This document shows, piece after piece, positions 1,167-12,295 of a DNA stretch of 33,772 bases. The stretch's first letter is position 1; each line of letters opens with the position of its first letter. Position numbers and translations under genes: made by a program. Source of the stretch: a bacterium (GTDB taxonomy: Bacteria > Armatimonadota > Chthonomonadetes > Chthonomonadales > CAJBBX01); the NCBI GenBank assembly GCA_009885735.1, contig VFKD01000268.1, positions 1 through 33,772 on the forward strand, given 5' to 3'. The notes under the pieces were generated by a model that had not been told where the DNA came from, made no database searches, and saw only the letters and a program-made list of their open reading frames with translations.

Positions 1167-2750
1167 CTACCCGACTGCTGCCGGAGCGTCGCGGTACTCA
1201 TCTACGGTGCGACACGCGAATGCGGCGCCGGCGCCCCTAGCCCGAAGCGCCATGAGCAGCGCCTTCGCGGTGTCCAGCGAGGTGAGGCATGGCACTCCCA
1301 CCTCCACCGATGTCCGCCGAATCTGAAGCGCCTCACGCTCGGAGCGCTTGTCCGTTGAGACCGTGTTTACTAGGAGATCGACCTTGCGTGCGCGAACGAG
1401 ATCGAGCAGGTTCGGCGAGCCTTCGTGAATCTTCAGGACGGACTGGCAATCGATTCCGCGGCTGCGCAGAAACGCAGAGGTGCCCGAGGTAGCATAGACC
1501 GAATAGCCAATCTCTGCGAATCCTCGCACCACTGCAACCGCCTCTTCCTTGTCCTGCTCCGCGATTGTGGCGATCATCGTGCCCATTAGGGGTACGTCTA
1601 CGCCGCTGGCCACCATGGCCTTGTAGAGCGCCCGACTATAGTCTGTGTCCATTCCCATGATCTCGCCGGTAGACTTCATCTCCGGGCCCAGAACAACATC
1701 TACGCCTGTGAGCTTTGGAAAGCTGAATACCGGCGCCTTCACCGCAATGAGATTGCGGCTTGGGTAGAGGCCGGACGAATAGCCCTGCTCGCGCAAGGAG
1801 CGACCAATCATTATCTCTGTGGCTACCTTCACCATGGGAATGCCGGTGATCTTCGAGAGGTAGGGAACCGTGCGGCTGGCGCGCGGGTTTACTTCGAGAA
1901 CCTGCGCAACCTCATTCTCAACCACATATTGGATGTTCATGAGCCCTCGAACCTCTAGTCGGAGCGCCAGTGCTGTGGCAGTTTCGACTATCTGATCGAT
2001 CACAGACTGAGAGAGCGACTGCGGAGGGTAGACCGCCATCGAGTCTCCAGAGTGGACGCCCGCTCGCTCGATATGCTCCATGATGCCCGGCAGAAGACAG
2101 TCCACTCCGTCGCAAATGACATCGACCTCCACCTCCTTGCCGAGCACATACTTGTCCACCAGAATGGGGGCTCGCGGCGACACGTCCACGGCGTATCGCA
2201 TATACGTTCCCAACTCATCTGGATTGAAGACAATCTCCATGGCTCGCCCGCCCAGGACGTATGATGGCCGCACCAGCACCGGGTAGCCAACCTCCTCGGC
2301 CACGCGGAGGGCGGCTTCGGCACTGGTTACGGCTCGTCCAGCGGGCTTTGGAATGCCAAGTTCCGTAAGCACCCGCTCAAAGCGGTCTCTGTCCTCCGCG
2401 AGGTCGATGGATTCGCAGCTTGAGCCCAGGATAGGAATTCCGGCATCGTGCAGGGGACGCGCCAGGTTGATGGCTGTCTGTCCGCCAAACTGCACGACCA
2501 CGCCCTTTGGCTGCTCTCGGTCCAGAATGTTGAGGACATCCTCGGAAGTCAGCGGCTCGAAATAGAGCCTGTCCGAAGTATCGAAGTCGGTACTGACAGT
2601 TTCTGGGTTATTGTTGATTATTACAGCCTGGTAACCCGCGTTTCGCAACGCCGTAACGCAGTGTACCGAGCAGTAATCGAATTCAATACCCTGACCAATT
2701 CGAATGGGGCCTGAACCCAAAACAACAATTGTTTCGCCAATATCCGGCAT
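1167..2750 (-). CDS. carB: Carbamoyl-phosphate synthase large chain, C-terminal half (split CarB)
   Basis: The 527-aa protein is the second half of CarB. It opens with [20 protein letters not shown], the start of the second carbamoyl-phosphate domain. It carries the ATP-grasp core ([14 protein letters not shown]; the metal-binding [15 protein letters not shown]) and ends with the MGS-like regulatory domain from about residue 385 ([27 protein letters not shown]). In bacteria with intact CarB this half phosphorylates carbamate to carbamoyl phosphate, and the MGS domain binds effectors such as UMP or ornithine. The ATG at 2750 follows AAAGGTTAATCA, a reasonable SD. Together with the N-terminal half (568 aa) it adds up to a full-length CarB of about 1,095 aa, so nothing is missing. 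The two halves are separated by a methyltransferase and a CADD gene. Split CarB is known from methanogens and Aquifex. Confidence 0.96.
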
Positions 2751-2785
2751 TGATTAACCTTTAAGAATGTGGGGTCGTCACTCCT

Positions 2786-2837
2786 GGGCTCGGCAAGCCC
2801 TGCACCCTACGCACGAACGTCTGGTATATGCGTAGGG
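2786..2837 (-). promoter_or_regulatory. Two hairpins in the leader of the carB C-terminal half
   Basis: The 118-nt gap upstream of this carB half contains two inverted repeats. One is a perfect 9-bp stem (CCCTACGCA at 2805-2813 pairing with 2829-2837, 15-nt loop). The other is a 5-bp GGGCT/AGCCC stem at 2786-2800. There is no U-tract, so a classic terminator is unlikely. They could be an mRNA-processing or stability element that sets the level of this half relative to the other. Confidence 0.45.
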
Positions 2838-2868
2838 CGTACGGCTCGCCGCACCCGGCAATCGGGCT

Positions 2869-3537
2869 CTAACAGGCGATCTCGTGGCGGCGGCATACGC
2901 CCGAGAGCATCTCCCACATCGCGTCAAGCGCGCGGTCTCCCGCTGCCGCGGCCTCGGCCTCGTTGGCGCCAACCGTATCGAGGATCATCGCGCGCTCTGC
3001 GGCAGCGTGCTCTTTGTCTGCCTCAATGTGAACCGTGAAGTACTTGTAGTCCTCAGCAATAGTCATCCCATAGTGCGCCTTGAGGCCGGATATCTTGGAC
3101 TCAGACACCGCAGGTATCTGGCTCTCGTATGAATAGAGCGCCGCCAGGCCGTCTGCAACCGAACAGTCTCGGCAAATCGAACGGAAAGTGGACACCAGGT
3201 TCTGGGTCTCGGGCCACGGCGCAGTGTCGTGAACCTGACCGTTCGTCAGCCCAAGACCCTCGGCGAAGCGCAGCCACAACTGCGGATGATTCGGCGCGCC
3301 AGCCTCCTCGTCCACGAGGTTCTGCAAAATCTGCTTGCGCACGCCCTGGTCGTCACAATGCGAATGAACTGCCGAGAGGTAGGTGGGGAATGCCGCCACA
3401 TGGTGATAGTACTGCGCGGCGTAATCTCTCAGCGCGTCAAGGCTGAGTTCGCCTCGGGTCCAAGCCTGGTAAAACGGATGCGTAAGAAGGTGCTTCGCGG
3501 CGACTTGCGCGTCCAACGTCTCGATAATACTGTTCAT
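2869..3537 (-). CDS. CADD-family diiron/Fe-Mn oxygenase, likely p-aminobenzoate synthase
   Basis: The 222-aa protein has the heme-oxygenase/TenA-like helical fold and matches the CADD folate-related family. From memory, Chlamydia CADD uses Glu81, His88, Glu142, His174, Asp178 and His181 as metal ligands, with Tyr27 and Lys152 as the sacrificed residues that become p-aminobenzoate. At a constant offset of -4, this protein has Glu77, His84, Glu138, His170, Asp174, His177, Tyr23 and Lys148. Motifs seen are NLVDEEAG, YSYESQIP and VHIEADKEH. The ATG at 3537 is chosen because AAAGGAGAG precedes it; an upstream start would add ten residues without an SD. The likely role is supplying p-aminobenzoate for folate in the cytosol, probably as a single-turnover 'suicide' enzyme. 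It sits between the two carB halves. Confidence 0.88.
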   Translation of the reverse strand: MNSIIETLDAQVAAKHLLTHPFYQAWTRGELSLDALRDYAAQYYHHVAAFPTYLSAVHSHCDDQGVRKQILQNLVDEEAGAPNHPQLWLRFAEGLGLTNGQVHDTAPWPETQNLVSTFRSICRDCSVADGLAALYSYESQIPAVSESKISGLKAHYGMTIAEDYKYFTVHIEADKEHAAAERAMILDTVGANEAEAAAAGDRALDAMWEMLSGVCRRHEIAC

Positions 3538-3600
3538 GACCAACTCTCCTTTCGAGCGTAAGTACAACGTGTTTGCATGATGGCTCTTGCCGTACCGTGT

Positions 3601-4416
3601 TCAGTGGGACTTTCGAGCGAAGACCTGCGTCATGCGGACCATTCCAATCACTATTTCCTCGTTTGCTGCAATCGCTCTTAGCGTGCCAAGAAGAGCGCTA
3701 AGCTCTTCGTCCGTTGTTAGACCGGCGGCAATGAGTGCCGATGCACACTCCTCAAGCGTCCAGTCCGGCAGATGCTTCTCGGGTCCTCGTGCATAGACCG
3801 GCTGAGACAGATGCATCGAAATTTCTTCAAATCCGGCTGCACGTACCAACCCATACAGTTCAGATCCAATCTGAAAGCGACGGCCCCGCTTCTCTCCAAG
3901 CTCTCGGTAGAGTTCGAAGGCTCTGTCAAACGCTTTCGAGGGTGGGCAAGCGAACGGTGTGCAAAAGTCGCCGTCCTCCACTGCTAATGTACCCCCAGGC
4001 TTCAAAAGCCGTCGCACCTCGTCCAGCGCCAGGTTCGGATGCCCCAAGTGCATCAGCACAAATCGTGCGTATACCAGGTCGAAGCTGTCCGCTTTCAGAC
4101 CGGTCGATTCCGCGCTCGCTACCCAGGTGTTGATGTTGCCTAACTCAGTAGCCTCAGCACGCCGTGCGGTCACCTCCACCTGCTCGGCGCTCACATCACA
4201 CGCGACGACGGAGCCCGATGGGCCCACCTGCTGAGCCATCCAGAGTGCCATGTTGCCCGATCCGCAGCCAACTTCCAGGACCCGCATTCCCGGTTGCAGG
4301 CCCGCACGCAGCAGAAACTCACGCGAATCGGGACCATGGACCTCGTTCAACACGGCTAGGCGCGCCTCGGCCGACGTGCCGGTTGCCAACACATAGTCGG
4401 CATTGGCGGCCGTCAC
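3601..4416 (-). CDS. Class I SAM-dependent methyltransferase
   Basis: The 271-aa Rossmann-fold methyltransferase has motif [13 protein letters not shown] at residues 46-57, an acidic residue after strand 2 (VVACDVS), and motif IV-V region [21 protein letters not shown] with a following [12 protein letters not shown]. These place it in the UbiE/Methyltransf_11-25 superfamily, which methylates small molecules. The substrate cannot be read from the sequence. Its ATG overlaps the stop of the N-terminal carB half by 4 nt (ATGA), so translation is probably coupled to it. CADD follows 63 nt later. Its place next to a p-aminobenzoate enzyme makes a cofactor or quinone-like substrate conceivable, but that is only neighbourhood inference. 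Confidence 0.85.
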
Positions 4417-6119
4417 GCGGCTTCCTCGTTGGTCCTAATCTGCTCGTCTTCTGAATCGTAGCACGAGTAGAAGTAAGGCGTCGCAGCTTCAAACTCCGCC
4501 GCGCAGGTGTCCACCATCTTGTAGGTAGGCAGAATTCCGAATGCCTTCCGCAGGCTGCGAACAAGTTTCTCCGTGAGGCCGGAGAGCTCTGCGATCTGCC
4601 GGTCCGCAAATCCGAGCCGCTTCGCATCCAGCAGCATGTCGGCTGCCGGCGAGTCTTTGTCGAGCGTGTCGGTGAGCGCGGCGATGTCGCGCCCATACAC
4701 CTTTAGTCGCGTCTCCATGGCCACCAGATTGTGAATCTTATGCAGAAACCACTTGTCCACGTTCGAGAGCGCGTGAATCTCCTCCACCATCATTCCGCGG
4801 CGCAGCGCCTCCGCGATGGCAAACAATCTCTCATCGTTCGGCACCTGTATCTTGTCTTCGAGTTGAACATCCGAGAGCGAGTTGACACCCTTCGCGGAGA
4901 GACCATGCGCCCCTATCTCAAGGCTGCGAATGGCCTTCATGAGCGCCGGTTCAAAGGCTCGGTCGATGGCCATCACCTCGCCGGTAGCCTTCATCTGCGT
5001 CGTGATGCGCCGGTCGGCGAGTGCGAACTTGTCGAACGGCCAGCGTGGAATCTTCACAACGCAATAGTCGAGTGCGGGCTCGAAGCACGCCAGCGTCTTC
5101 TTGGTGACGGCATTCTGTATCTCGTCCAGGCGGAGGCCAATAGCGATCTTTGAAGCGACACGTGCGATGGGGTAGCCGGTCGCTTTGGACGCAAGGGCGG
5201 ACGACCGCGAAACCCTTGGATTGACCTCGATAATGAAGTACTGGTAGCTGTGTGGGTCGAGTGCAAGTTGGACGTTGCAGCCGCCCTCTATCTCTAGGTT
5301 TCGAATAATTCTGAGAGAGGCGGTACGCAGCATCTGATACTCTTTGTCCGAGAGCGTCTGCGAGGGCGCCACCACAATTGAGTCCCCAGTGTGGACTCCC
5401 ATGGGGTCAAAATTCTCCATATTGCACACGGTGATGCAAGTGTCGTTTGCATCCCGCATCACTTCGTACTCAATCTCTTTCCAGCCGATGAGCGAGCGCT
5501 CGACCATTACCTGGTGTCTAGGGGAAAGGCTGAGGCCACGGGAGCCAATCTCCATTAGCTCCTCGGGATTGTGGGCTACCCCTCCGCCCGTACCTCCCAA
5601 GGTGTAGGCGGGCCGAACAATGAGGGGCCAAAGGCCCACATGGCAGACCTCGGCTAGGGCCTGCTCGGATTCGACGATCCAACTGTCCGGCACCGGCTCG
5701 CCGATGCGCCGCATGAGCGAGCGGAACTCCTCGCGATCCTCCGCCATGCGGATGGACCGAAGCTGGGTGCCAAGCAATCGCACGTTGTACCGCTCCAGCA
5801 CCCCCTCCTCGGCCAGCTTCGTCGCCAAGTTCAGTCCGGTCTGGCCTCCCAGCGTGGGCAGAAGGCCGTCGGGACGTTCAAGAGCAATCACACGCTCGGC
5901 AAACTCCACATTGAGCGGCTCGATGTAGACGCGATCCGCCGTCTCTACGTCGGTCATGATCGTGGCCGGATTCGAGTTGATGAGAACCACCGAGACGCCC
6001 TCTTCGCGCAGCGATGCGCATGCCTGCGTGCCGGCGTAGTCAAATTCAGCCGCCTGCCCGATGATGATCGGGCCGGAGCCGATTACAAGAACCTTTTTTA
6101 TGCTTGGGTCGCGTGGCAT
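4413..6119 (-). CDS. carB: Carbamoyl-phosphate synthase large chain, N-terminal half (split CarB)
   Basis: The 568-aa protein is the first half of CarB. It opens with [20 protein letters not shown] and carries the first ATP-grasp domain ([36 protein letters not shown]), which in whole CarB makes carboxyphosphate and uses ammonia tunnelled from CarA. The oligomerisation domain follows to the end. It stops just after [20 protein letters not shown], exactly where intact CarB enters its second synthetase domain. The break is thus at a natural domain border, not a frameshift inside a fold. It lies 37 nt after the M1 peptidase gene and overlaps the methyltransferase start by 4 nt. It should assemble with the C-terminal half (1167-2750) and CarA (11210-12295) into the holoenzyme that feeds PyrB and arginine synthesis. 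Confidence 0.97.
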
Positions 6120-11209: not shown

Positions 11210-12295
11210 TTATCCCCTTCGGCTGCGCAGGAGATCGGCAAACTCGCGAAAGTAGTAGGCGCTGTCGGACGGTCCCGGCGAGGCCTCGGGATGGTACTGG
11301 ATCGAGAACACGGGAAGCTCCCGGTGCCGCAGGCCCTCTACTGTCCCGTCGTTGAGGTTGATGTGCCCAACTTCCATTCCGCCCGAGAGGGTGGCAGGGT
11401 CCAGCGCATATCCGTGGTTCTGGGACGTGATATAGACTCGGTCAGTCGAGAGATCCCGAACTGGATGATTGCTGCCCCTGTGTCCGAAGCGAAGCTTGAA
11501 CGTGCGAGCGCCGAATGCGGCACCCAGCAGTTGGTTGCCAAGGCAGACGCCCATGATGGGGACTGAGTGGGCGAGCTTTTTCACATTCTGCACCAGGTGC
11601 CCAAGCATCGCGGGGTCGCCTGGTCCAGGTGAGAGCATGACTCCGTCGGGCTTGCGCTCGAGCATCTCCTCGGCAGAGGTGGCGCAAGGATAGACCGTCG
11701 CGCGGCAGCCCACTGCTGCCAAGCTCCGCATGATGTTGAACTTCACGCCGCAGTCGAGCAAAGCCACCTCGAATTCGGGATCGCCCTCGTACGGCCAGAC
11801 GTAAGGCACCGGCGTCGAGACCTGGCTCACGTAGTCCGTACCGTCATATCCGGGCCGCGCCCTGAGCGCATCAAGCGCCTCGGCAGCAGAGTCCTCGGTG
11901 GTTATCACGCCCATCATCACGCCGTGTACCCGCAGCTTGCGCGTGAGAGCCCGCGTATCGATTTCGCGAATTCCGACCACGCCTTTGTCGCGAAGAAAGT
12001 CGTGAAGCCCGCCGGTACAGCGCCAATTACTGGGTACGTCCTCGACCGTTCGAACGATGAAGCCCTCGACCTGTACTCGGCGGGATTCGAAGTCGTCTGC
12101 ATTCACACCATAGTTGCCGATGAGCGGATAGGTGAGCGTGACGAGCTGGCCCGCATACGATGGATCGGTGAGGATCTCCTGATAGCCGGTCATACCCGTA
12201 TTGAAAACCACTTCGCCAAACGCTCGACCAGACGCTCCCAGAGACCTGCCCTCGAACAGCGTGCCGTCTTCTAATGCAAGTATTGCGGTGCTCAT
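11210..12295 (-). CDS. carA: Carbamoyl-phosphate synthase small chain
   Basis: The 361-aa glutamine amidotransferase subunit is of normal family length. The N-terminal CPSase_sm_chain domain (GTLFEGRSLGASG, NTGMTGYQEILTDPSY) is followed by a class I GATase domain with Cys251 in GVCLGNQLLGA, His335 and Glu337 in QYHPEASPG, and the oxyanion segment LSPGPGDP at 222-229. It hydrolyses glutamine and passes ammonia to CarB. Here its partner is made as two separate polypeptides from genes 5 and 9 kb downstream, so three chains must assemble. It starts 9 nt after the amidohydrolase stop with a poor SD, suggesting reinitiation, and ends 5 nt before lepB. Confidence 0.97.
   Translation of the reverse strand: MSTAILALEDGTLFEGRSLGASGRAFGEVVFNTGMTGYQEILTDPSYAGQLVTLTYPLIGNYGVNADDFESRRVQVEGFIVRTVEDVPSNWRCTGGLHDFLRDKGVVGIREIDTRALTRKLRVHGVMMGVITTEDSAAEALDALRARPGYDGTDYVSQVSTPVPYVWPYEGDPEFEVALLDCGVKFNIMRSLAAVGCRATVYPCATSAEEMLERKPDGVMLSPGPGDPAMLGHLVQNVKKLAHSVPIMGVCLGNQLLGAAFGARTFKLRFGHRGSNHPVRDLSTDRVYITSQNHGYALDPATLSGGMEVGHINLNDGTVEGLRHRELPVFSIQYHPEASPGPSDSAYYFREFADLLRSRRG

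What the first reader, a model, noticed from the sequence alone, without database searches (positions are those of the whole stretch)
1167..6119. CarB split at its domain boundary with two foreign genes between the halves
The N-terminal half ends right after the oligomerisation domain and the C-terminal half starts at the second synthetase domain, each with its own start and stop. Their lengths (568 + 527 aa) sum to a normal CarB. A methyltransferase and a CADD gene lie between, so this is not a simple frameshift. Split CarB is known from methanogens and Aquifex; this arrangement looks independent.
Basis: partly seen in the sequence, partly recalled or inferred. Interest (0 to 1): 0.7.

Follow-up and report, generated by a model that had tools for sequence, protein, structure and literature searches.

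The report
Split CarB with genes between halves
In this uncultured Armatimonadota bacterium the large subunit of carbamoyl-phosphate synthetase is made as two separate proteins; the split is old and common in the phylum, apparently happened several times and was reversed at least once, and the two genes lying between the halves are neighbours that moved in later.

Summary
CarB-N (4413-6119, minus, 568 aa) and CarB-C (1167-2750, minus, 527 aa) align to E. coli CarB 1-552 and 560-1058. A methyltransferase (MT) and a CADD-family gene lie between them. The genome (97% complete) has no intact carB and one carA. The reading "foreign insertion into a split carB" is only partly right. The split is old: in 75 Armatimonadota genomes with a readable CarB of this type, 49 are split and 26 fused. 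In the window's order the intervening block is itself old: N-MT-c7-C in several genera, including cultured Chthonomonas calidirosea T49. MT was found only in this order and always beside a carB half. CADD was added in the window's lineage and one relative's. Elsewhere the halves are adjacent, kilobases apart or unlinked, yet both stay under strong purifying selection (dN/dS 0.03-0.15). Trees need four changes of state; a single origin of all splits is rejected (AU p = 0.0003). One fused CarB (G082) lies inside the split clade, implying re-fusion. Fused CarBs elsewhere keep a near-constant 25-residue junction; the fused sisters of the main split clade carry 29-96. Most likely this is a working three-chain CPS of the Aquifex type; activity is inferred.

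The parts
4413..6119 (-). carB-N (CPS.A): preATP-grasp + ATP-grasp + oligomerisation domain, 568 aa, ends [22 protein letters not shown]
3601..4416 (-). class I SAM-dependent methyltransferase, 271 aa; GTG start overlaps the carB-N stop by 4 nt; order-specific, always beside a carB half
2869..3537 (-). CADD-family gene (closest solved structures are 4-aminobenzoate synthases), likely ATG start at 3537 with AGGAG
2751..2868 (-). 118-nt intergenic stretch with a long hairpin (core 2805-2838) that is a copy of a dispersed palindromic repeat of this genome
1167..2750 (-). carB-C (CPS.B): second preATP-grasp + ATP-grasp + MGS allosteric domain, 527 aa
11210..12295 (-). carA, glutaminase subunit, the only copy found in the genome
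14642..17484 (-). pyrC, pyrB, pyrR upstream in the same operon-like run

Best explanation
A functional three-chain carbamoyl-phosphate synthetase: CarA (glutaminase) + CarB-N (bicarbonate to carboxyphosphate to carbamate; oligomerisation domain) + CarB-C (carbamate to carbamoyl phosphate; allosteric domain). The halves are made separately and reassemble non-covalently so that the carbamate tunnel is kept. The split happened in an ancestor shared by several Armatimonadota families, at the point where the two halves of CarB join. Genes then accumulated in the gap: MT and c7 early in the order, CADD later in the lineage of the window and G123, with c7 lost in the window. Shown: separate frames, no intact carB, retained active-site motifs, purifying selection on both halves, co-inheritance of the halves, and their dispersal in relatives. 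Inferred: assembly, activity and tunnel integrity, by analogy with Aquifex aeolicus.
For: Domain content and alignment to E. coli CarB. In those alignments the motifs that hold the ATP-grasp catalytic residues are intact: AEDRxxF, VRPxYxLGG, WKE and VEVD, GVHTGDS and GVHSGDS, NVQ and [12 protein letters not shown] and EVNPRASRT (their roles are recalled from E. coli CPS). One carA and no other carB. dN/dS 0.03-0.15 for both halves in five pairs where it could be computed. N and C distances correlate at r = 0.82 in split rows and 0.78 in fused rows, and the order is one clade in both half-trees. Halves lie on different large contigs in G080 and about 850 kb apart in G117, so they must work in trans. 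Aquifex CPS.A + CPS.B + GLN form an active 171-kDa complex (PMC6022934).
Against: No expression or biochemical data for any Armatimonadota CPS. The MAG is in 741 contigs with about 3% missing, so a further CPS cannot be fully excluded. Some relatives, such as G089, carry an additional distant fused CarB.
Confidence: 0.9

Rival explanations
1. The split CarB is decaying or unnecessary: the organism salvages pyrimidines and arginine, or relies on another CPS, and the halves are relics.
For: Some relatives (G089, G001, G068, G115) keep an additional, distantly related fused CarB. G114 has an in-frame TAG inside its carB-N.
Against: dN/dS 0.03-0.15 in both halves; near-universal retention of both halves in complete genomes of the order; no second CarB in the window's genome; carA, pyrB, pyrC and pyrR lie alongside.
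Confidence: 0.04
2. The methyltransferase between the halves is a functional partner of this CPS (for example methylating a subunit, or tuning assembly), not a passenger. This could hold together with the best explanation.
For: MT is found only in this order (7 of 121 genomes in the phylum draw; 16 of 31 in the order). It sits directly beside carB-N in all but one of these (in G123 it is linked to carB-C), often with a 4-nt overlap.
Against: Close relatives with the same split lack it (G096/G102/G122, G130/G131, G067, G120, G036). It diverges faster (41-51% identity) than the CarB halves (mostly 70-84%). Its fold is a generic class I methyltransferase. Operon neighbours are often functionally unrelated.
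Confidence: 0.1
3. Assembly or binning artefact joining distant loci.
For: The source is a 741-contig MAG.
Against: Same halves and same intervening MT in independent genomes of several genera, including the finished C. calidirosea T49 genome.
Confidence: 0.01

Closest known systems
Aquifex aeolicus three-subunit CPS (CPS.A, CPS.B, GLN; Ahuja et al. 2001, as described in PMC6022934)
   Same: CarB encoded as two genes corresponding to CPS.A and CPS.B, with a separate glutaminase; from my own knowledge the Aquifex halves are about 557 and 537 aa, so the cut is near the same point
   Different: Different phylum; within Armatimonadota the split arose from fused ancestors; here other genes lie between the halves inside a pyr operon-like run; activity has been shown only for Aquifex
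Methanogen split CarB (CarB1/CarB2, e.g. Methanocaldococcus jannaschii; own knowledge)
   Same: CarB as two open reading frames
   Different: As I recall, M. jannaschii pieces are about 482 and 618 aa, so the cut lies elsewhere; an archaeal lineage; not compared here by sequence
Canonical two-subunit bacterial CPS (E. coli CarA/CarB, PDB 1bxr)
   Same: All domains and active-site motifs, alignable nearly end to end
   Different: One 1073-aa large chain there, two chains here

Membership tests
Split (Aquifex-type) carbamoyl-phosphate synthetase large subunit | two separate ORFs that together cover the whole CarB | tested here: met
   E. coli 1-552 and 560-1058
Split (Aquifex-type) carbamoyl-phosphate synthetase large subunit | cut between oligomerisation domain and second synthetase unit | tested here: met
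Split (Aquifex-type) carbamoyl-phosphate synthetase large subunit | no intact CarB in the genome | tested here: met
   (genome 97% complete)
Split (Aquifex-type) carbamoyl-phosphate synthetase large subunit | separate glutaminase gene (carA) | tested here: met
   one carA, window 11210-12295
Split (Aquifex-type) carbamoyl-phosphate synthetase large subunit | active-site motifs kept in both ATP-grasp units | tested here: met
   alignments; residue roles recalled from E. coli
Split (Aquifex-type) carbamoyl-phosphate synthetase large subunit | the chains assemble into an active complex | not testable with these tools
   needs purified proteins
CADD family (4-aminobenzoate synthase) | family model above the curated cut-off | tested here: met
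   TIGR04305 294.7 bits, cut-off 200; PDB 8va9, 9pj4, 1rcw at E about 1e-53
CADD family (4-aminobenzoate synthase) | replaces pabABC | tested here: inconclusive
   only a partial, sub-threshold pabB-model hit (148-aa frame on C368); pabA and pabC not searched
Class I SAM-dependent methyltransferase | fold and SAM-binding motif | tested here: met
   [10 protein letters not shown] motif; model pLDDT 92, best PDB match 3mgg, TM 0.75-0.82

The most novel reading that the evidence does not exclude
Fission of CarB was reversible here. One split lay at the base of the clade that holds f7/f25/f28, the main split families and the long-linker fused families; the long-linker fused CarBs (f4, f8, f18, f19, f20, f34) are then re-fusions whose 29-96-residue linkers are read-through scars of the former intergenic region, as in the clearer case of G082 (28 residues). 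CarB in this phylum would have cycled between one chain and two.
Probability: 0.3. Interest if true: 0.65.

Novelty: new variant of a known kind. Interest (0 to 1): 0.5.

Why it matters
CarB is a textbook duplicated and fused enzyme with a long internal tunnel that hands over unstable carbamate. A phylum in which it was cut at the same point apparently more than once, whose halves range from adjacent to unlinked, and in which at least one lineage re-fused, is a natural experiment on how a channelled enzyme tolerates losing its covalent link. A cultured host (C. calidirosea T49) makes it testable. It also extends the reported operon dispersal of Armatimonadota genomes down to within a gene.

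Tried and rejected
Frameshift or assembly error: rejected (separate starts and stops, recurrence in independent genomes). Intact carB elsewhere in the genome: none. MT as a horizontally acquired private insert: not supported, since it recurs at the carB locus through the order. All splits as one origin: rejected by the AU test, p = 0.0003; main clade plus f7/f25/f28 as one clade: p = 0.016; main split clade without fused G082: p = 0.0008. In the first FastTree the family f14 (it includes the genomes of loci L010, L027 and L035) grouped near the distant paralogues; without these it joined the main split clade, so the first placement was probably long-branch attraction. In the single-half trees the main clade is neither recovered nor rejected (p 0.24 and 0.43). 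G119 looks split only because its contigs end inside the gene. The f14 C-half looked truncated; it is complete, with an insertion of roughly 20-50 residues. A methyltransferase structure search gave only a generic fold. Rfam: no hits. Paper searches found no report of split carB in Armatimonadota; the text of the C. calidirosea and F. ginsengisoli genome papers does not mention carbamoyl. Many subscription papers are not held.

Full report
What is there. The window is contig C226 of a 5.0-Mb, 97% complete genome. Its nearest named relative in the genome collection is an uncultured Chthonomonas MAG (82% identity of CarB-N), so it belongs to the Armatimonadota. On the minus strand runs pyrR - pyrB - pyrC - (hypothetical) - amidohydrolase - carA - signal-peptidase-like gene - glycosyltransferase-like gene - M1 peptidase - carB-N - MT - CADD - carB-C - Smr. 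carB-N (568 aa) holds the first ATP-grasp unit and the oligomerisation domain; carB-C (527 aa) holds the second ATP-grasp unit and the MGS-like allosteric domain. They align to E. coli CarB 1-552 and 560-1058.

No intact copy. A CPSase_L_D2 search of the own genome gives four hits: the two halves and two other genes of shorter frame that match the halves only weakly, presumably biotin-carboxylase-type ATP-grasp enzymes. carA is single.

The split is old and common. In 121 Armatimonadota genomes, counting CarBs of the window's type with both halves readable, 49 are split and 26 fused. The outgroup CarBs fetched (Firmicutes, Chloroflexota, Bacteroidota and others) are single genes wherever the locus allowed a reading: 72 of 77; the other five frames are shorter, four of them still running from N into C, most plausibly cut by contig ends or sequence breaks. 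A second, distant CarB type (about 47-55% identity) is fused in all 17 rows.

Stages of separation. Halves 70-100 bp apart (G096, G102, G122); MT between (G047, G089, G108, G124, G125); MT + c7 between (C. calidirosea T49 = G022, G007, G057, G126, G127, G129, G133); c7 only (G067, G130, G131); MT then CADD between (window); MT, c7-like gene and CADD before carB-C with carB-N on another contig (G123); about 5 kb between (G036); different contigs or 60-850 kb apart (G079, G080, G117 and others).. G022 is identified by its contig length of 3,437,861 bases, the published genome size of T49.

The inserted genes. MT homologues at E < 1e-15 occur in 16 of 31 genomes of the order; in 15 the gene sits directly downstream of carB-N (or, in the window, overlaps its stop) and in G123 it is linked to carB-C (G123 has one further weak hit). 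At E < 1e-30 none is found in the rest of the 121-genome phylum draw. Its model (pLDDT 92) is a generic class I methyltransferase closest to 3mgg. CADD occurs in 8 of 31 genomes of the order, at other loci in most, so it moved next to carB-C in the window/G123 lineage. Calling the two genes 'foreign' is therefore not supported.

The junction. From TPYYYSTYE to GSGPIRIGQ the outgroups and most fused Armatimonadota have 25 residues (24-27 where the anchor was found in full). The fused families closest to the main split clade (f4, f8, f18, f19, f20, f34) have 29-96. Split N-halves mostly stop 12-25 residues after the TPY anchor and C-halves probably start within about 8-25 residues before GSGPIRIG, so separate split lineages are cut at nearly the same point.

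Trees. On 62 concatenated CarBs the split/fused state needs four changes. The main split group (f1, f2, f3, f5, f6, f14, f15, f24) has support 93/96 and contains one fused member, G082, whose exclusion is rejected (AU p = 0.0008). G082 keeps pyrC-amidohydrolase-carA-signal peptidase-glycosyltransferase-carB-c9, while its relatives have N-(MT)-c7-C-c9, as expected if the intervening genes were deleted and the halves re-joined. A single clade of all split CarBs is rejected (p = 0.0003), and main + f7/f25/f28 is rejected more weakly (p = 0.016). Three splits plus one re-fusion, or two splits plus two re-fusions, fit equally by count; the odd linkers make the second attractive but linker growth before fission explains them too. 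The trees used LG+G4, the groups were named after seeing earlier trees, and the single-half trees do not resolve the main clade, so the number of events is less certain than the existence of more than one.

Function. Both halves are under strong purifying selection (dN/dS 0.03-0.15 in five pairs), their distances correlate as in fused enzymes (0.82 against 0.78) and the order is monophyletic in both half-trees. [quoted passage not shown] The simplest account is a three-chain CPS.

Context. The C. calidirosea genome, and with it that of F. ginsengisoli, was described as disorganised, with functionally related genes dispersed; F. ginsengisoli also has split rRNA operons. The CarB split fits that tendency. 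No paper in the held library was found to report split carB in this phylum; that is absence from this library and these searches only.

Noticed in passing
2751-2868 (core 2805-2838): Strong hairpin (-59.4 kcal/mol, z = -5.1) between CADD and carB-C; about 14 partial copies elsewhere in the genome at E < 1e-3, so a dispersed palindromic (REP/MITE-like) repeat.
   Followed up: partly
L188 (G082:C3:22000-38000): Fused CarB nested inside the split clade, with a 28-residue junction: a candidate natural re-fusion.
   Followed up: yes
L184 (G114 carB-N): In-frame TAG inside carB-N just before VIEVNPR, which cuts the N half into 297 and 271 codons; sequencing error, pseudogene or suppression not resolved.
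   Followed up: no
L195 (G005), L196 (G016), L197 (G001), L194 (G089): A second, distant fused CarB (about 47% identity), next to the main CarB in G005, G016 and G001; possibly pathway-specific CPS copies.
   Followed up: no
L227 (G107): Fused CarB whose N half is 69% but C half only 51% identical to the window; groups with the distant type in the concatenated tree, possibly a chimera.
   Followed up: no
L177-L187, L189 (cluster c7): Conserved ~330-aa protein of unknown function with apparent hydrophobic helices and a coiled-coil-like part (judged by eye), encoded directly before carB-C in family f2; a c7-like gene also in G123.
   Followed up: partly
L208 (G111 carB-N): carB-N frame of 800 codons with about 200 extra residues between the synthetase and oligomerisation parts.
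   Followed up: no
G000:C368:9925-10329: Only a partial, sub-threshold pabB-model hit in the genome; with CADD present this hints at non-canonical 4-aminobenzoate synthesis, but the hit may be a broken trpE or pabB.
   Followed up: partly
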